Assembly: GCA_028753945.1 (NCBI GenBank)
Contig: JAPNXP010000013.1
Coordinates: 4,775,501-4,839,500, forward strand
Origin: Hexactinellida sp. DTS-2022
Taxonomy: Eukaryota > Porifera > Hexactinellida
Direction of reading: 5' to 3'
DNA length: 64,000 bases
Positions within the stretch are counted from its first letter, which is position 1; every line of letters starts with the position of its first letter. A model generated the notes under the pieces. That model was not told the DNA's origin and made no database searches. It was given only the letters and a program-made list of their open reading frames with translations. A program made the position numbers and the translations under genes. Shown piece after piece: positions 3 through 53,032 of the stretch.

Positions 3-593
3 GCAGCTGGTAAGTTCGACAGCAAGCTCCTAATGTCCTGTCTAGAGAACTTCAACAACCTTCTCTTGTCGGACATTCAGGCTCACTACAAGGACCCCAC
101 CAAGCCATACCCGGGGGACAACAACCCTCTCATGTTCGAACTCGCTACCTACCTAGAAGCGACCGGGTTACACGATCCCTCCACTAAGATATACATCGCT
201 ACTACACAGCACATCAATATATCTCTCATAAAGTTCCTATTGCTGTACACCCAGCTATCTAAACTGACTTATTTCAGAAAGATAGGGGGCCTCGTGGCTA
301 AGAAACAGTCAGAGGCTATCGACGGGCCTCCCTTCATAACAGGGATGGTGACCCTGCTGAGACAGTTCCATTCTGACGTCACAGACGAGTTCCTACAGTA
401 CACTTGTCAGTACATCCGGTCTCTGTTGTACGAGGACACTTCTAAGGAGAGGGTCGGAGATGTGACAGACGATATTGTGGTTGCGCTCACATTCATGGAT
501 GACTTTATGCGTACAGCGGGTCTCTCAAGAGATAAAGTGCTCAATAGTATTCCTACTTATTTGTTCGATGAGTTCAGAACACTGGCTATTTGA
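3..593 (+). CDS. WASHC5: Strumpellin (WASH complex subunit 5), C-terminal exon
   Basis: The window opens inside an exon; the reading frame is open from base 3 (AGKFDSKLL..) and ends at TGA 591-593. The visible 196 or so residues correspond to the extreme C-terminus of strumpellin. The landmarks are a DGPPF..G.VTLLRQFHS segment and a terminal FDEFRT. Strumpellin is a large helical subunit of the WASH complex, which activates Arp2/3 on endosomes for actin-driven sorting. Most of the roughly 1,150-residue protein lies before the window. The ATG at 33 is internal, not a start. Identification is by remembered family similarity of the tail only, so it is good but not certain. Confidence 0.8.
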   Translation, partial: AAGKFDSKLLMSCLENFNNLLLSDIQAHYKDPTKPYPGDNNPLMFELATYLEATGLHDPSTKIYIATTQHINISLIKFLLLYTQLSKLTYFRKIGGLVAKKQSEAIDGPPFITGMVTLLRQFHSDVTDEFLQYTCQYIRSLLYEDTSKERVGDVTDDIVVALTFMDDFMRTAGLSRDKVLNSIPTYLFDEFRTLAI

Positions 594-1317: not shown

Positions 1318-4300
1318 ATGCCAAGGCTAAGCGTAGAAGTTATAACAGAAGCAGATCAGTACGTAAATGCAATTAGAGACAGGGAACTTAATCTGAGAGG
1401 TGAGACCTCTATTCTACCTAGTAACTAGTTGTGTCTATGGAATGCATTATGTTATATTCCCTCTAGCAAAGAAGATTCCTGCAATTGAGAATTTGGGGGC
1501 AACACTCGTAAGTTGGCATTTATTAATGTTATATCTCAGTTGGTTAATACAATTCATTTTAGGACCAGTTTGATACGATAGACTTTTCGGATAATGACAT
1601 TTGTCGGTTGGATGGGTTCCCATTGCTGAAGAGACTGAAAACGCTACTTTTGAACAACAATAGGATTTGGTAAGGCTTACCTTCCAAACTTATTTAGGGT
1701 TTATACATATTATAATTTATAAACCTTCCTTGCATAGTTTCAAATTGTAACTACAGTAAACTCTCGTTATAACGAAGTGCTTGGGACCTGTAAATTCATT
1801 CGTTATATCCAGATATTCGTTATAAGCGGATAATAATTAATGCATTTATTGCTCTGGGGGAAAATATCCATTTCGTTATATCTGACTTCGTTATAACGGG
1901 AGTTGACTGTATTTGAATGCGTTATTAACTTAAATTACTTATCTCTTTAGCCGATTTGCTGAGGATCTCAATCTCTCTCTCCCAAACCTCGACACTATTA
2001 TACTAACCAACAACACAATGCAGGATCTGGTGAGTATACGTAGAGTCAAACAAAACAGATTAATTTAATACAAATAGTTAATATAAATACGTGAAAAATA
2101 GAATGAAAGATACCAGAGCACACATAACAAAATACAAATTACAGGTTTAATACTCGAATTGAAAGCAGCAGGGAATTAGAGTGAGTGGATAAAATGTGAC
2201 TTTATGATGAGTCAATAAAATCGAGGAAGTTATGTAGAACTGATTTGTAGCTGAGTTTTGTTGGCCCAGTCTCGTTGGTTTTATCCCTAACTAAAGTCGG
2301 GGTTGAGAGATTCAAGAGGAACAGCTCATTGCACTGATTGGGAGCTAAGGCCGCGTCTACGGGAATTGAGATAGTCGAGACGCCCACGGTTACGTTCTGT
2401 TTATGCGTATCGTGGTGGGATTGTATCTTATCGATGATAACGCCTTTGAGGGGAAGTTTGTTAGATTGGAAGAGCTCGCTGTTGGCCCAGTTGGTGAGCA
2501 GGGTCGACAGGTACTGCTTGGGCTGCGGAAGCATTATGTGGAACACGAGTCCGAGCTCCTCTTCCGGCTGATCCAGGACACTCAGGATGTGAGAGGTCAG
2601 TTTGTGGTTGTTCGCGCTAGGCGAATCCGCGAGCTTGAAGCAGAGATAGCGGTAGCCCTTGTCCGTGTATAGGGAGGAATGTTTCACGACTTGTACGGGA
2701 CTGTTCAGAGAGGTTATAGCCACACAAACACCCTTCATCTTTGGCGAGAAAGAAGGGGACTTCGTTTCCTGTGCAAGCTTTGTGGTGTATCGACTGTTGG
2801 AAAAGGGAGAATGCATGTAGCGAACCCCGGCCGGACGAATGAGCCTGCTCAAACGCGGAATGCTTAGTTTGGAAACGAAGGTCGACATTTCTCTACTAAA
2901 TATGAAATTTATAAATTGTTAGAAAAGCTAATGAGTAAGGCATACGATTCTATTTATATTTCTCTCTATAAGCTACTAACTAAGTTGTATGTATTCAGTT
3001 ACTCAAGCCGATACAAATTGCATTAGTGGGAATGTACTAAATACATAATGCACGCAGTAACTTAATATTTTGTGTGTGATGCAATAAATTTAGAAACAGG
3101 TTTTGAGTGCTCAATTTGAGGTTTAATTAATTTATTAATTTATTCGTAATTAATTTTATTTCGACAACAAATTGTTGCAAGTTTATAATACTAAATTCGT
3201 AATCAGCACACTTTCTACCTATTATAATATTTGAAGGTCCCCTATCACTATAACAAACAACTCGCAACAATAGAATTTCAATTTATATATAGATAAATAT
3301 TGTATTATTAATAAAGTTAAACTAGTTTGTTATCAGTTAACAAGTTGTAATTGTCTGCAAGACTCCAAATGCTTTGCAATCTTGTAGAGCGTGATATCCC
3401 AAATAATAAAGTTTTAATTTAAAGATTTCAAGCTTCAGGTTTATTGGCTAGATATAGATTAAGCTCTGCAGCCCATTTATAATGTTTGAAATACACTTTT
3501 ACAACCCTGGGCAACCGCGGGTTTTAATTAATTAATTAATTAATAAATAATAGCGAAATACAACAAATCCAATTCAAGCAAACATAACAAATAAATTACA
3601 AGGGTCTGACTGAATGGTGGAAAATGGTGGAAAATGGTGGAAAACATCCGAGAGTGGTGGAAAATGGTGGAAAATGGTGGAAAACTACTTGACTGAATGG
3701 TGGAAAATGGTGGAAAATGGTGGAATTTCTGAATTTTCGTCGAAATGACTGAATGGTGGAAAGTGGTGGAATTTCTAAAAATCGACTGAAAGGTGGAAAA
3801 TGGTGGAAAATGGTGGAAAACGACTGAATGGTGGAAAATGGTGGAAAACGACTGAATGGTGGAAAATGGTGGAAAACGACTGAATGGTGGAAAATGGTGG
3901 AAAACGACTGAATGGTGGATAGTGGTGGAATTTCTAAAAATCGACTGAAAGGTGGAAAATGGTGGATAATGGTGGAAAATGACTGAATGGTGGAAAATGG
4001 TGGAAAACGACTGAATGGTGGAAAATGGTGGAAAACGCCTGAATGGTGGAAAATGGTGGAAAAACGGGGGCTGACTGAATAGTGGAATCTAGTGGAATCT
4101 TTGACTGAATAGTGGAATCGAGTGGAATTTGATTAAATTGTTAAACACTACGTATATGCTATAAGCTACGTGTGTATCATATTACGTTAATTTTCGCCCA
4201 TGTAAAATTGTTTGCAATGATTGAAGTGACACAATAGGATTTATTAGTTAGGCTTTGTTACCATGTTATTTAGACACATCTTATTACATTATTTATCAAC

Positions 4301-7034
4301 AATTCCTTATCAAATCCAGTTGGTATTCATTGGGCAGTTCAATAGAGATGATTAGTAAGAATACAAATATAGTATCATATTGTCCCACTTCATGCACAAC
4401 ACTAGTTCAATCATTGCAAACAATTTTACATGGGCGAAAATTAACGTAATATGATACACACGTAGCTTATAGCATATACGTAGTGTTTAACAATTTAATC
4501 AAATTCCACTCGATTCCACTATTCAGTCAAAGATTCCACTAGATTCCACTATTCAGTCAGCCCCCGTTTTTCCACCATTTTCCACCATTCAGTCATTTTC
4601 CACCATTATCCACCATTCAGTCGTTTTCCACCATTTTCCACCATTCAGTCGTTTTCCACCATTTTCCACCATTTTCCACCTTTCAGTCGATTTTTAGAAA
4701 TTCCACCACTTCCCACCATTCAGTCATTTCGACGAAAATTCAGAAATTCCACCATTTTCCACCATTTTCCACCATTTTCCACCATTCAGTCAAGTAGTTT
4801 TCCACCATTTTCCACCATTTTCCACCATTATCCACCATTCAGTCGTTTTCCACCATTTTCCACCATTCAGTCGTTTTCCACCATTTTCCACCATTCAGTC
4901 GTTTTCCACCATTTTCCACCATTCAGTCGTTTTCCACCATTTTCCACCATTTTCCACCTTTCAGTCGATTTTTAGAAATTCCACCACTTTCCACCATTCA
5001 GTCGTTTTCCACCATTATCCACCATTCAGTCGTTTTCCACCATTTTCCACCATTCAGTCGTTTTCCACCATTTTCCACCATTTTCCACCTTTCAGTCGAT
5101 TTTTAGAAATTCCACCACTTTCCACCATTCAGTCATTTCGACGAAAATTCAGAAATTCCACCATTTTCCACCATTTTCCACCATTTTCCACCATTCAGTC
5201 AAGTAGTTTTCCACCATTTTCCACCATTTTCCACCACTCTCGGATGTTTTCCACCATTTTCCACCATTTTCCACCATTCAGTCAGACCCAATTACAATCT
5301 CATTTCTGGAATCTGAACTGATTGATTCTAACAAATTTACTTGTCAGAGTATGACAATCAGACCATTACTACTAGTGAGTGATTATGATTACGATTATGA
5401 TTACATCCTTCAAAAAAGCTTGATTATTATTATTCTTACGATTATAGGAAATGTTGTAATCGTAATCAGTCCCAAGCCTGATGACACTGACATGTATTTA
5501 CATGCTCTGTTAGTATTGTTTAATTTGTATATATTTAGAAGGACATACTGCCCCTAAAACCACTCAGAAAGCTTACATGTTTGTGGTGAGTTAATGTTGT
5601 ATAATAATTTTGTTGTTTTAACAAAAAACACAAAACCAAACAATTGTATCTTCAGTTTCCTGAAGAACCCTATTATCCACAAGCCTCACTACAGAATGTA
5701 CGTTATATACCACCTCCCGCAGGTCAGACTGCTGGATTTCCGTAGGATACGACTCAAGGTAAGCGCAACGTAGTCAGTTAGTAACCGAGTTAAACCCACT
5801 TTATATGTTGCAAATTATACACAATTAATGGTTACTCCTTATGAGCAGGTGAAGCTGGGAATTTAATTATTTACTTTGGAAATATTTTACTTACTATGGA
5901 TAAGTGCTTTTGTTAGAATAGTAGGGAGCGAGTATTATGTTGTATAAATTATTTATCAATCTCTCCATATCTAGCTGTTTAGTAGCATGAAGATACAAGG
6001 TGAGTCACAAACAAACAATGAGTGATTGCATCAGAATACGAAGTATCCCCAATTATTATAATACTAGTGCTTTGGCTTTATACAAGTATTCTAATGTGTC
6101 ACCATTATTTGTAAGAACAGTTTATGACTTTGGCATGAACATAAATATTTTATTTATTTTATTTATATACTACGGACAAACTTTTATACAAACGTTACAA
6201 ACACTCGAATTGTATATATGTTTGCTTTACAATAGGAGCGTAATCAAGCTAAGCAGATATTCCAGTCTAGAAGAATGGACTCTGCAACGGAAATACTACC
6301 AGCTACTCCAGCTTCGTAAGTTCGAGGGACAATTATATAATTAGATACAGTCAACTCCCGTTATAACGAAGTGCTTGGGACCGTAGTTTCTTTTCGTTAT
6401 AAGCGGATTTCGATCTTAAAAGTTATAAGCAGGTATTTCGTTATATCCGAATCTGTTATAACGGGAGTTGACTGTAACTGTATTTGTTAATGATTACGTC
6501 ATTGCTATTTATTCGATGCTAATTTTAGAACAACTGTTACTGCGTCTAGTAGTGTTGCTCAGAAGTCTGTTGATGAATTAGAGAAGATACGAGTAAGTTT
6601 ATTGTATTAGTTAATTCTAAATTCAGTAGACTCCGCTTAATAGAGCCACCAGTTAATTGGGTAAACAATTAACAGGATTTATTGAACGGATTTACAATTT
6701 GTTTGCAATATTTTGTTAACTTTTTCTTAATTAAAGTTAACACTGTATTGTTAACTTAATTAAGCAGAAAAATAACGATTCATTTCCTTTCACTTTTCAT
6801 GAATTAATTAATTATGAAGTAATTTCTTTAGAATTTAAAACGTTGCAATTTTGAATATATATTTAGAACAGAAAGTCTAAATTTAGACTATACTAAGGTA
6901 TTATGATACAATACAGCTAACGTTGTATTTCCATTGTGAATCTATAGGCTGCCATAGACCAAGCAAAGACGATTGAAGATATAAAAAGACTCGACAGTAT
7001 TCTGGCTGGAGGAGCTGACATACCTGGCTTTTAG
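1318..7034 (+). CDS. SNRPA1: U2 snRNP protein A' (nine exons)
   Basis: Exons are 1318-1399, 1467-1507, 1563-1669, 1951-2029, 5539-5585, 5656-5758, 6236-6315, 6529-6592 and 6948-7034. Joined they give 229 residues in one frame with GT-AG borders, against about 255 in vertebrates. The start MPRLSVEVI..A.QYVNAIRDREL matches U2A'. It is followed by leucine-rich repeats (IENLGATLDQFDTIDFSDN, LDGFPLLKRLKTLLLNNNRI, LILTNN-type) and the LRR cap (HKPHYRMYVIYHLPQVRLLDF). U2A' holds U2B'' on stem-loop IV of U2 snRNA during branch-site recognition. Intron 4 (2030-5538) carries an opposite-strand gene and a foldback transposon. Introns 3 and 7 each contain a TA-flanked MITE. The repeat-free introns are 55-70 bp. 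Confidence 0.93.
1754..1909. mobile_element. pogo/Tigger-type MITE in SNRPA1 intron 3
   Basis: Inverted ends CAGTAAACTCTCGTTATAAC and GTTATAACGGGAGTTGACTG are flanked by TA on each side (1752-1753, 1910-1911). At 156 bp it has no coding capacity. Ends of the CAGT..CTC type with a TA duplication resemble pogo/Tigger non-autonomous elements. Confidence 0.8.
2202..2888 (-). CDS. Unrecognised protein with probable mitochondrial presequence, nested in SNRPA1 intron
   Basis: A single-exon 228-residue frame lies on the strand opposite to SNRPA1, inside its intron 4. The first 45 or so residues are rich in Ser, Arg and Lys with almost no acids (KLSIPRLSRLIRPAGVRYMH), which looks like a mitochondrial targeting peptide. 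The rest is a mixed alpha/beta-like sequence without a motif I know; a segment reads LGLVFHIMLPQPKQYLSTLLTNWA. A length of 687 bp with no stop in this AT-rich setting argues that it is real. I cannot assign a family. Alternatives are a fast-evolving mitoribosomal or matrix protein, or a lineage-restricted gene. Confidence 0.65.
   Translation of the reverse strand: MSTFVSKLSIPRLSRLIRPAGVRYMHSPFSNSRYTTKLAQETKSPSFSPKMKGVCVAITSLNSPVQVVKHSSLYTDKGYRYLCFKLADSPSANNHKLTSHILSVLDQPEEELGLVFHIMLPQPKQYLSTLLTNWANSELFQSNKLPLKGVIIDKIQSHHDTHKQNVTVGVSTISIPVDAALAPNQCNELFLLNLSTPTLVRDKTNETGPTKLSYKSVLHNFLDFIDSS
3602..4225 (+). repeat. Left inverted arm of the foldback element
   Basis: This 624-bp arm is a tandem array of GGTGGAAAAT-type units to about 4064, then GACTGAATAGTGGAATC variants, then unique sequence up to TTGCAATGATTGAA. 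Confidence 0.9.
4406..5289 (-). repeat. Right inverted arm of the foldback element
   Basis: This 884-bp arm is the reverse complement of the left arm. It is about 260 bp longer because it carries more copies of the 27-bp-type unit. The inner unique part (4406-4540) mirrors the left arm almost perfectly. Confidence 0.9.
6348..6474. mobile_element. pogo/Tigger-type MITE in SNRPA1 intron 7
   Basis: A 127-bp element with ends CAGTCAACTCCCGTTATAAC / GTTATAACGGGAGTTGACTG and a TA on both sides (6346-6347, 6475-6476). Confidence 0.85.
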
Positions 7035-21250: not shown

Positions 21251-21784
21251 CTACTTCTTCCCCATGTTATCAGCCAGCCAGTCCAGCCCCTCGTAGAGAC
21301 CAGTGCCCTGTGTTCCGACCGCGGGCTGCACGTACCAGTTCTTGCGCACTTTGTTCAGCTGTAGACTCTCAGTCAACTCAGCTGCTGTCATGGCATTCGG
21401 GAGATCTTGTTTGTTCGCGAAAATTAACACGACTGTATCGCGTAGCTCTTCTTCGCTCAGCATTTTCTGTAGCTCGTCGCGCGCCTCGATAATCCTGTCC
21501 TTGTCGCTGCTGTCCACTACGAATATGAGTCCCTGTGTGTTTGTTAAGTACTGTCTCACTATGTGTTTGTACATTATTCTGTTCTGACAGCCGAGATCCC
21601 ACACAGTGAAGTTAAAATTCTTATACGTTGCACTCTCAACAATGAATCCGATAGTGGGTATGGTAGTAACAACTTCTCCTCTTTTCAGTTTGTTGAGAAT
21701 AGTGCTCTTACCCGCTCCGTCCAGTCCAACCATTGAAATCCGCATGTTCTCTTTACAAAATATATTAGAAAACGTCAAACCCAT
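21251..21784 (-). CDS. Divergent ARF-family GTPase (duplicate of the neighbouring ARF1)
   Basis: 177 residues, intronless. The C-terminal 100 or so residues (from [17 protein letters not shown] to the end) are nearly identical to the ARF1 copy at 22791-23330. The N-terminal half differs greatly. It reads DGAGKST for the P-loop, PTIGFIVE for the usual PTIGFNVE, and [18 protein letters not shown] where ARF has [16 protein letters not shown]. It also lacks four to five residues of the N-terminal amphipathic helix. Gln of switch II, NKQD and the N-terminal Gly (for myristoylation) remain. It may be a young paralogue losing GTPase or effector function, or a decaying copy repaired at its 3' half by gene conversion. 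Confidence 0.8.
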
Positions 21785-21902
21785 TCGTATAATTTATTAG
21801 CAATGAAAGAACTATAAATACACAAGAGAGCTAAGCTTTATACAATTTCTAATTACTGCCACGTATACCATTATTACTAGAGTATAGCCACGTATTCATA
21901 TC

Positions 21903-22790: not shown

Positions 22791-23375
<585 letters not shown>

Positions 23376-50626: not shown

Positions 50627-53032
50627 ATGGAATACAGCGCGGACAAAATCAAGGAAAACGGAGGCTATATGAGTGGGGCCTTGTGGCAAGGCTACGAACG
50701 TTTTTGTGAGATTAAGGAAAATTCTTATCTACAGAGCGGAATCGAGAAATCTATGTCGACCGTCACATACATGACTCCAACCTTTGCACAAGAATCAATA
50801 AAACAATACTGTAAGTATATACAATAATTTATTGCATTAATAGTCAAGCTGTCTGTTAGCATCTACCAATTTCCTTACAATTAAATAATTATTGCCAATT
50901 CAAGAGCTACCGTAGCACGTGATAATTTAAAGCGTCTTTGAAATTCAACTAAAAATCATCGGAATAGCAAATAAATAAATTATGTGAAATAAATCCATAA
51001 TTATCTGTTACTGCAGAGGTTAAAGGAGAATGTGTCGTAACTTGGTGCGAGAAATTATTTCTATTTACGGAATTACAACAGTTCGCAAAAGTTTTTGGTA
51101 CCATTTGTTAATTACGCAAAAATGTGAATGTAATGAATTTCCAACGAAATAATATTTTATTGATTCCGATAATAGAATTAATTGATTTAATGGTTTTAAG
51201 AATTTAAAATTTTGAAACGTGTGTGTAGATAGTGATGCTTCTCATGCCCTCGCGAATATTTACACCCACTCTACAGACAGTCTTTCGAGTGGAAAGGGAT
51301 ACATCGGAGTAAAGATATCTGATGGTAAGAACAAGTAATTCTAATCAATATTAATAAATAATTTAAGCGGACAAATTAAGAGGACAAATTTTACTTTTGA
51401 AATGGATATGGTATTCATTACGATCTATATACGTACAGTACGTACAATATTAATTATAATAAGCTAGCAATTGAAATTCGTATTAACCGTTTAATTTCTA
51501 ACAAGAACGTTTGGAAGAGGACTGAAATAGTGTATGTATTACAAGAAATAAGGAATACCGAGGTTCTACAGTAGTATTTACTGGTTTACGGCCCATTAGG
51601 CAAGGGCTACGTCCAGGAGTACATAGAAGGGAAGGTGACAAGCGGACGAGATATCGTGTCAGGCGCGAAAGACAGAGTGGGAGCCCAAGTAAGCTCCAGC
51701 ACTGATTACGTGAAGGGCAGACTGAATAGCAATGCTGAGTACGTACAGTCCACTCGAGTGGGACAGGCCCTGAAGACTGGTGTCGACAAGGGACTGACAG
51801 CAGCAGACGGAGTGATTGATTATCTCCTGCCAGGGGAAGGGGAGTCGCGCCGAGATGACGGGGTCTGGGAACACGGGAAGGAGGTCACCTCCAAAGCAAA
51901 GGAGCGAGTAACATCGGCTATAGCCAATAAATGCTATGAAACCAGCGGTTACTTCAGCAATGTAAGAACTTGCTGTTGTGATAGTACAGTCGACTCCGGT
52001 TAATAGAAATCACTGCTTAATCGAGTCAAACTTCACAGGATTTATAGGACGGAATTACATTTTGGCTTAAAATATTTTCGGTTAATAGATTTCTCCGGTT
52101 AATCGGGTCAAAATTTCACAGGATTTATAGGACGGAATTACATTTTGGCTTAAAATATTTTCGATTAATATATTTCACTGCTTAATCGGGTCAAAACGAC
52201 CTGGTCCCGAGGTGACTCTATTAAGCGGAGTCGACTGTAGTATAAACTATGCATTACAAGCTATTCAATGTAGAAATATACCAGGAGCAAGGAGAGCATG
52301 GATATGGCGAAAGGGTACGCGTACGAAGTTACGGTCGCGAAGGGGACTCAAATCAGCCAACAATTCAAGCACGGGATGGACTACCTGGACACACTAACCG
52401 TGGTACAAAGGTTGGCTAAGAACTTTGGGGAGGCAGTGATTTCAGCGGAAGACATAATAGATACATACATTCCTGAGAACGAAATGGTATCCGGGGAGGG
52501 CGATGAAATCGAGAGGGGCTCCCTCGAACATGCTGTTAAGCTGACGAGAAGAATTCAGAAAAAGCTTATAGGGAAAATAAGGGAGGTTACTGGTCGATTC
52601 CCTTCCTTGGAAACTGGACTTATAAATAGAGTAAGTGTTTATTGCAATTGTTACAGATTATGTTGATATATTTAATTGGATTCTTTAGAACATCTTCATC
52701 AAGGTTAATCAGTTGCCGTTACCAAGAGTTGTAAAAAGCTACTTCCCTCAATACTTCAAAGAGGTATGTTATTAATCTTAGATTAATACTAAGGAATTAT
52801 TTATATATATCGGCCAAAACCTTTTGCAGTGTAATTTTCAGGCGCAAAAAATGTCATGTTTTAACATTAAAATTCTCCTTTGCGAAGCCGGGTTTTAATA
52901 TTGGCCGGTAGTATATGTAAGCCGATTATTCATCATATATTGTCTACTAAGTTCAATTTAAATAAATCTTTTTAGAAAAATGAAGATTTAAAAGTTGAAG
53001 ATAAGACAGTTACCGTCAGTGACATGAGTTGA
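50627..53032 (+). CDS. Perilipin (PAT family lipid-droplet protein), six exons
   Basis: Exons are 50627-50810, 51229-51324, 51600-51961, 52292-52630, 52689-52763 and 52976-53032, giving 370 residues. Exon 3 carries 11-mer-type amphipathic repeats (GAKDRVGAQVSSSTDYVKGRLNSNAEYV) and VGQALKTGVDKGLTAADGVIDYLLP, matching the perilipin block SGVENALTKSELLVEQYLP. Exon 4 has a second DIIDTYIPEN-like segment and the four-helix start. Perilipins coat lipid droplets and gate lipolysis. The acceptor of exon 4 (GCAAG before GAGAGC) is chosen on phase and is the weakest border. Intron 3 contains a MITE. Confidence 0.78.
51987..52237. mobile_element. TA-flanked MITE in perilipin intron 3
   Basis: Ends CAGTCGACTCCGGTTAATAG and TATTAAGCGGAGTCGACTG, TA on both sides (51985-51986, 52238-52239). 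An internal stretch of about 80 bp is itself repeated (GGTCAAA..CACAGGATTTATAGGACGG twice). Confidence 0.85.

What the first reader, a model, noticed from the sequence alone, without database searches (positions are those of the whole stretch)
3594..5297. Foldback transposon whose arms are satellite-like arrays, with a perfect 8-bp target duplication
Two inverted arms (624 and 884 bp) made of 27-bp-type GGTGGAAAAT units enclose a 180-bp loop, and identical AATTACAA octamers flank them. Unequal unit number between arms implies expansion or contraction since insertion. The structure resembles Galileo/FB-type foldback elements, but the unit sequence and termini (GGGTCTGACTGAATGG) are unfamiliar to me. 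The unit recurs so often that it may be a subterminal transposase-binding array.
Basis: partly seen in the sequence, partly recalled or inferred. Interest (0 to 1): 0.75.

Follow-up and report, generated by a model that had tools for sequence, protein, structure and literature searches.

The report
Chimeric Mutator-type foldback transposon, hypervariable arms
This is a small, gene-less jumping DNA element of the Mutator group, stitched together from pieces of two related larger transposons and flanked by long mirrored minisatellite arms whose length differs in every copy compared, although the element's centre hardly differs between copies.

Summary
It is one of many copies. The 21-base terminus occurs 189+194 times in the genome (control 0+0). 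Of 36 elements paired, 18 have perfect 8- or 9-bp duplications, against 0 of 1260 mispaired flanks. Joined flanks of two sister copies match paralogous empty sites.

Transposase-bearing relatives exist, but they are Mutator-like (MULE), not hAT, P or Merlin. Two decayed copies with the same terminus and arm units, and two open-frame (994-aa) copies with a sister terminus, encode a PHD-like-OTU-MULE protein.

The element is chimeric. Its 371-bp inner core is the left subterminal region of the sister (B-type) MULE folded back on itself; arrays of the A-type MULE stand outside it at one conserved junction (43 matches at 23 loci). Cores are nearly alike (0-10 mismatches), yet all 38 arms compared are different unit strings and 0 of 19 copies have equal arms.

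Foldback MULEs are known (FB, Tm1, FARE), so this is a new variant of a known kind. Use of the array as transposase-binding sites is plausible but untested; the order of fold and array capture is unresolved.

The parts
3594..3601 (.). target site duplication, left copy (AATTACAA)
   Evidence: perfect match to 5290-5297
5290..5297 (.). target site duplication, right copy (AATTACAA)
3602..4225 (+). left foldback arm (624 bp)
4406..5289 (-). right foldback arm (884 bp)
3602..4066 (+). A-type array of the left arm: terminus GGGTCTGACTGAAT plus 31 units starting GGTGG (465 bp)
   Evidence: tokenised; same ordered unit types in arms of the coding A-type relatives L042/L043
4565..5289 (-). A-type array of the right arm: terminus plus 49 units (725 bp)
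4067..4564 (.). B-type core (498 bp) with its own inverted termini GGGGCTGACTGAATAGTGGAATC; 159 bp of each side perfectly complementary
4132..4502 (.). folded-back left subterminal region of a B-type PHD-like-OTU-MULE element (91-94% identical to positions 580-853 of the C1 copy)
4226..4405 (.). loop (180 bp); in the C17 copy the core region holds a nested 8.4-kb element with its own 9-bp duplication

Best explanation
A non-autonomous Mutator-like (MULE) foldback element. Shown from sequence: (1) its outer arms are terminal minisatellite arrays of the same type and order as those of A-type MULEs that carry remains of a PHD-like-OTU-MULE protein; (2) its core is the left end of a B-type MULE of the same protein family, duplicated head-to-head, with neither the gene nor the other end; (3) the A array abuts the B terminus at one conserved junction on both sides, at 23 loci (20 of them two-sided), so the chimera most likely arose once and then spread, with 8- or 9-bp target duplications. 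Inferred: the core arose by snap-back or template-switch repair of one transposon end. The A array was gained at one end and copied to the other, or was there before the fold; the order is unresolved. A MULE transposase acting in trans cuts at GGGTCTGACTG..., using the repeated units as binding sites. The arms lose and gain units at or after each insertion by slippage, unequal exchange or hairpin repair.
For: Terminus: 189+194 genomic matches, control 0+0. Duplications: 18 of 36 paired elements perfect (10 of 9 bp, 8 of 8 bp) and 24 of 36 with at most 1 mismatch, against 0 and 1 of 1260 mispaired flanks. Paralogous empty sites: joined flanks with one TSD copy of L067 and L062 span the junction at 40 scored places each. 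MULE: the 956-aa part of the intact B-type frame scores OTU 1.7e-8 and MULE 3.1e-7 (31.2 bits, cut-off 27.6) and weakly matches IS256 transposase. A-type: L043 has the window's terminus, a perfect 9-bp TSD, and OTU, PHD and MULE (0.0015) hits that are all below cut-off; L042 has OTU 1.1e-11 and MULE 0.0031, the latter below cut-off; both are 69-74% identical to the B-type copy in the coding part. Core origin. Same folded core between B termini only: L076, L095, L096, L097. Junction 22+21, control 0+0. Arm grammar shared with L042/L043. Near-identical cores with hypervariable arms.
Against: The two A-type coding copies examined, L042 and L043, are broken; two more matching loci (C6, C16) appear only as fragments and their ends were not examined. 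So no intact transposase with exactly the window's termini was seen; the two intact frames have the B terminus. MULE scores of the A-type fragments are below the Pfam cut-off. 6 of 36 elements show 4 or more mismatches at the duplication, and 6 show two, a level also reached by 32 of 1260 mispaired flanks. In the two intact B copies extra bases lie between terminus and duplication on one side (5 and 9 bases). No binding or transposition data. No empty-site allele of the window copy.
Confidence: 0.86

Rival explanations
1. The foldback is mobilised by the NOF-like OTU protein (1096 aa) found inside the C17 copy, as in Drosophila FB-NOF.
For: The C17 copy has the same arms and core pieces 99.6-100% identical to the window's, and encloses an intact 1096-aa frame with an OTU domain.
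Against: The 8428-bp block has its own long inverted ends (ACGAGTGTGAAG..., 98.6% over 718 bp, 177-bp units) and its own 9-bp duplication CATATTGTC in the core, so it is a nested, separate element. Its termini do not resemble the foldback's.
Confidence: 0.06
2. hAT, P (Galileo) or Merlin foldback.
For: 8-bp duplication and FB/Galileo-like shape.
Against: Mixed 8- and 9-bp duplications. Relatives encode a MULE domain, and no hAT, P or Merlin family was hit; THAP only at E 0.055, below its cut-off, in one fragment.
Confidence: 0.02
3. The arm-length variation is an assembly artefact of a repetitive region.
For: Short-unit arrays are easily collapsed or expanded; no reads were available.
Against: Arms are 104-950 bp, well within one long read. 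Variation is by whole, mostly exact units with a conserved outer and inner order. The genome is in 18 contigs.
Confidence: 0.08
4. One-step origin: a B-type element sat in an A array, and one head-to-head duplication made the whole palindrome at once; foldbacks with only B ends are inner elements that later jumped out using their own termini.
For: The junction is the same on both sides and genome-wide. Over the 278 bp of core compared, the four B-only folded cores are no more diverged from the window (3-6 mismatches) than the composites (0-6), and L076 (B-only, own 9-bp duplication) is identical to L053 (composite).
Against: The core tree has no supported fork (0 of 15 inner branches), so the order fold first, arms later fits as well. 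No A array with a B element complete to its right end was seen, but none was searched for.
Confidence: 0.35

Closest known systems
Tm1 (Mutator/Foldback, root-knot nematodes; PMC3169594, abstract, section 9 and part 1 of section 11 read)
   Same: FB-like composite inverted ends of variable length built from short tandem motifs differing between the two ends of one element; 9-bp duplications; gene-less majority plus few coding copies with a MULE-type transposase.
   Different: Tm1 is described as Phantom-type with a FLYWCH finger, 1-9 units of about 14 bp, apparently inactive, no two elements identical. Here: OTU domain and PHD-like finger, another unit, up to tens of units per arm, near-identical cores, chimeric A/B build.
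Drosophila FB and FB-NOF (recalled; PMC3169594 states that some foldbacks group with Mutator)
   Same: Short nested tandem units in long inverted ends, unequal arms, about 9-bp duplications, and here too a large OTU-bearing protein element lodged in one copy.
   Different: Unit sequences unrelated as far as recalled (not compared); the protein element inside the C17 copy is a nested insertion with its own ends.
Rehavkus (MULE outgroup with PHD finger, 9-bp duplication, minisatellite before the 3' end; passages of PMC6446971)
   Same: PHD-like finger, 9-bp duplications, minisatellite near the ends.
   Different: Here arrays are at both ends and an OTU domain is present; no Rehavkus sequence was available for comparison.
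Plant MULEs with multiple long TIRs (PMC3310237, abstract and section 17 read)
   Same: Two nested sets of termini at each end, amplified as such.
   Different: There duplicated ends, mostly in tandem; here the outer and inner ends come from two families.
Galileo (P superfamily; PMC3688188, abstract and outline read) and Tetris (PMC4079207, abstract and passages read)
   Same: Long internally repeated ends; for Galileo multiple transposase-binding sites in the repeats were identified.
   Different: Galileo is a P-type transposon; the Tetris transposase is unknown and its unit is about 220 bp.

Membership tests
Mutator-like (MULE) superfamily | 8- to 11-bp target site duplication | tested here: met
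   18 of 36 perfect (10 at 9 bp, 8 at 8 bp), 0 of 1260 mispaired
Mutator-like (MULE) superfamily | relative with the same termini encodes a MULE transposase | tested here: met
   A-type L043 (9-bp TSD) has MULE at E 0.0015, below cut-off; its coding part is 69-73% identical at DNA level to the B-type copy, whose frame passes the MULE cut-off. No intact frame with exactly A termini was found.
Mutator-like (MULE) superfamily | catalytic activity | not testable with these tools
   no experiment possible
Phantom (MULE subgroup) | N-terminal FLYWCH finger plus MULE domain (as described in PMC3169594) | tested here: not met
   no FLYWCH hit in the eight pieces or the 956-aa frame (which lacks about 40 N-terminal residues; the L042/L043 pieces cover that end)
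Rehavkus | PHD finger | tested here: inconclusive
   PHD 0.0066 and 0.25, both below cut-off; the first about 40 residues of the intact frame were not in the piece
Rehavkus | transposase groups with Rehavkus in a tree | not testable with these tools
   no Rehavkus protein sequence held
Foldback (FB) elements as a structural class | long inverted ends made of short tandem repeats, variable between ends and copies | tested here: met
Galileo / P superfamily | P-type transposase with THAP finger | tested here: not met
   no P transposase hit; THAP 0.055 below cut-off in one fragment only
hAT / Merlin | hAT or Merlin transposase in relatives | tested here: not met
   no such family among the Pfam hits

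The most novel reading that the evidence does not exclude
Arm length is re-made at essentially every transposition. The element jumps or is repaired through a hairpin, so the minisatellite arms are rewritten in whole units each time while the core is copied faithfully; foldback arms are then a by-product of the transposition mechanism and not of slow slippage. Both nested sets of termini can be used, so A arms are captured and shed while the same core keeps moving.
Probability: 0.2. Interest if true: 0.65.

Novelty: new variant of a known kind. Interest (0 to 1): 0.42.

Why it matters
How foldback transposons get their long repeated arms is an old open point. This family gives a readable series in one genome: two coding MULE families, folded cores with one set of ends, and chimeric foldbacks capped with the other family's arrays. 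With near-identical cores and all 38 compared arms different, the tempo of arm change can be measured against a substitution clock, and the binding-array idea can be tested with defined unit numbers. The PHD-like-OTU-MULE protein is also a domain set that I did not see in the listings or the passages; most listed papers were not opened and Repbase could not be searched.

Tried and rejected
Rejected: that the 9.6-kb C17 copy, with an intact 1096-aa frame and window-type arms, is the autonomous parent. Its identity to the window core looked decisive, but the 10-base overlap of the two core pieces contains a 9-bp target duplication around an independent element. Rejected: hAT, P and Merlin. I had inferred this from overall identities of 91.7-94.1%, which are lowered by gaps; on a 278-bp stretch of the core the difference vanishes and the tree is unresolved. 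I therefore raised the one-step rival from 0.25 to 0.35; no other odds changed. L039 (8.3 kb between A termini, duplication with one mismatch) gave 6 frames of 100 aa or more, none of them searched. L078 is the space between two elements, and L074 has no right end within the fetched stretch. L073 shows no direct duplication and L068 a 9-bp match shifted by two bases.

Literature searches that gave nothing on point: 0 papers; 4 papers, none relevant by title. Searches (4 papers; 85 papers, 20 listed) listed no paper that by title describes an OTU-bearing MULE. PMC2836005 passages mention Ulp1 in Mutator and OTU in Ginger1 and Helitron. PMC6875170 uses OTU only as operational taxonomic unit. PMC8277862 matched only in its reference list. 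PMC13359780 passages had no OTU or foldback. Absence from print is not claimed.

Neighbouring genes look animal-like by recalled family distributions (NHL, TH1, Ric8); no species was established. No structure prediction was made: the coding relatives come from genome-search loci, which are not on that tool's list of allowed sources.

Full report
What is there. The window holds, at 3602-5289, a foldback of two arms (624 and 884 bp) around a 180-bp loop, with AATTACAA directly on both sides. The basic array unit is 10 bp, GGTGGAAAAT, often in 28-bp dimers, with longer periods of 159 bp (left) and 131 bp (right). The array fills only the outer 465 and 725 bp. Inside it, on both sides, stands a second terminus-like sequence, GGGGCTGACTGAATAGTGGAATC (4067 and, mirrored, 4564), and then a non-array inverted stretch and the loop.

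Copies and insertion. The window lies in a 112.4-Mb genome of 18 contigs. GGGTCTGACTGAATGGTGGAA with up to 3 mismatches occurs 189 times forward and 194 times reverse; the reversed control pattern occurs 0 times. I fetched 40 stretches and paired left and right ends. Left out: L077 (a duplicate of L046), L076 (B-type ends), and L074 and L078 (no pair); L040 and L041 are one element. For the resulting 36 elements, the window included, the flanks give 18 perfect duplications (10 of 9 bp, 8 of 8 bp), 6 with one mismatch, 6 with two, and 6 with four or more. Of 1260 mispaired flank combinations, 0 are perfect, 1 has one mismatch and 32 have two, so the two-mismatch cases are weak. For two sister copies, L067 and L062 (2 of the 21 prepared), the flanks joined with a single duplication match 40 scored places each that span the junction; examples of equal length are C11:15239320-15239490 at 98% over 171 bases and C14:1834403-1834588 at 90% over 186. 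Several matches differ in length from the query, so they hold small gaps. These are paralogous empty sites. The window copy itself could not be tested in this way.

Transposase. Two long elements with the window's A-type terminus hold the remains of one protein in broken frames: L042 (C1, 3.9 kb, no duplication seen) and L043 (C12, 4.5 kb, perfect 9-bp duplication). Their pieces match OTU (L042 1.1e-11; L043 0.02, below cut-off), PHD (0.25 and 0.0066, below cut-off) and MULE (0.0031 and 0.0015, below cut-off). A search with one piece gave 12 matches at six loci. Two lie in 994-aa frames without stops, on C1 and C17, at 69% identity; those on C6 and C16 are fragments. The 956-aa part of the C1 frame in hand matches OTU (1.7e-8) and MULE (3.1e-7, 31.2 bits, above the cut-off of 27.6), OTU domains of solved structures (best 5.2e-4) and, weakly and far below its cut-off, IS256 transposase. 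The two intact copies have the B terminus GGGGCTGACTGAATAGTGGAATC (C17: GGGGCTGACTGAATAGTGG read) at both ends and B-type arrays of about 581/457 and 392/437 bp. Their duplications are imperfectly placed. C17 has TTCATTCAT on both sides, with 9 extra bases before the left terminus. C1 has a 7-base match with 5 extra bases.

Origin of the window element. The inner 371 bp (4132-4502) align in full to the left subterminal region of the intact C1 element. Bases 94-371 match its positions 853-580 (91.4%) and bases 1-94 match 583-673 (93.6%); no hit fell on its right end. The core is therefore one transposon end folded back on itself, without the gene and without the other end. The same folded core occurs between B termini only in four examined elements: L076 (duplication GTAAATGTC), L096 (CTCTTACGC), and L095 and L097 (no duplication). 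The outer arrays of the window are of the other family: the order of unit types from the terminus inward is that of the A-type coding elements L042 (left arm) and L043 (both arms). The A/B junction GGTGGAAAAACG-GGGGCTGACTGAATAGTGGAATC is found 22+21 times, 39 of the 43 without mismatch, control 0+0; by position these are 23 loci, 20 of them with the junction on both sides. The B terminus itself is found 105+106 times, control 0+0. The chimera thus most likely arose once and multiplied. 22 of the 37 elements analysed have the composite core together with A ends (L076 also matches the core but has B ends). 15 of these 22 have perfect duplications.

Order of steps. Over a 278-bp stretch of the core, the four B-only foldbacks differ from the window by 3 to 6 mismatches and the other composites compared by 0 to 6 (L048 and L061 over shorter stretches; the C17 copy was not included); L076 is identical to the composite L053. 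The two intact MULEs differ by 18. The tree has 0 supported inner branches of 15, and its bootstrap had not settled. Whether the fold came before the A arms, or whether inner elements jumped out of composites with their own B ends, is open.

Arms. In 19 composites both junctions can be read exactly. None of the 19 has the same number of units in both arms, and all 38 arms differ as unit strings, from 104 to 950 bp. Against this, the window core differs from 16 other cores by 0 to 10 mismatches in the best aligned piece (445-536 bases, 0 to 8 gaps), 15 of 16 by 4 or fewer; the L066 core is identical over 498 bases. Three composites (L049, L057, L061) were left out of the arm comparison for want of a regular junction, and the cores of the C17 copy and L048 were left out of the core comparison because they are long. 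The two arms of one element are somewhat more alike than arms of different elements (mean normalised distance 0.42 against 0.50; 1 of 300 shuffled pairings as low). Unit number therefore changes much faster than sequence. Without reads I cannot exclude assembly error in single arms.

A false lead. The C17 composite (9.6 kb, perfect 9-bp duplication) holds a 1096-aa frame with an OTU domain and looked like the parent. The 8428-bp block has its own ends, 98.6% complementary over 718 bp and made of 177-bp units, and its own duplication CATATTGTC in the foldback's core. It is a separate element that landed there. It resembles the Drosophila FB-NOF arrangement as I recall it; no NOF sequence was compared.

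How it probably works. Shown: insertion with 8/9-bp duplication, amplification, chimeric build, arms that vary faster than cores. Inferred from established knowledge of MULEs: cut-and-paste by a MULE transposase in trans that recognises GGGTCTGACTG ends. The source is either an intact A-type element not found here or the intact B-type protein. Inferred: the array serves as multiple binding sites, as reported for Galileo (PMC3688188, abstract). Inferred: the fold arose by snap-back repair of one end.

Place among known things. Foldback elements of the Mutator group are known. The nearest described is Tm1 (PMC3169594). Nested double ends are known in plant MULEs (PMC3310237). A MULE group with PHD finger and minisatellite is Rehavkus (PMC6446971, passages). 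The Phantom definition (FLYWCH) was tested and not met. I file this as a MULE foldback, new variant, with its subgroup open.

Noticed in passing
L040+L041 (C17:3758738-3768331), inner 8428 bp: A separate NOF-like element with inverted ends of 177-bp units, 9-bp duplication and an intact 1096-aa OTU-bearing frame sits inside a foldback copy; 54 matches to its protein in the genome (42 of 1218 candidates scored), several in frames over 1200 aa.
   Followed up: partly
L040:2799-4850: A block of about 2.05 kb inside that element matches 39 other genomic places at 99% among the 40 candidates scored: a young, abundant repeat of unknown kind.
   Followed up: no
C1:7975281-7979746 (L091, L081, L092): The intact B-type MULE is inserted into a NOF-like coding sequence: its right flank encodes residues 470-576 (88.8%) and its left flank residues 587-738 (60.9%) of the C17 protein.
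   Followed up: yes
window 21251-21793 and 22791-23375, - strand: Two neighbouring ARF-like frames, 85% identical (156 of 184); the last 78 residues are identical while the first half of one is strongly altered, including the usual DVGGQ stretch, as if conversion had kept only the 3' half alike.
   Followed up: partly
L067 and L062 flanks: Two foldback copies are inserted in multicopy repeats of this genome (618 and 1978 first-look candidates), which supply the empty sites.
   Followed up: yes
L074 (C9:1317800-1320200): About 1.4 kb lie between the A terminus and the B junction, a longer left arm than any of the 38 compared, with no right end within the stretch; possibly an array on its way to a satellite.
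   Followed up: no
window 51997-52197: A tandem repeat of 83 bp, 2.4 copies at 88%, outside the element.
   Followed up: no
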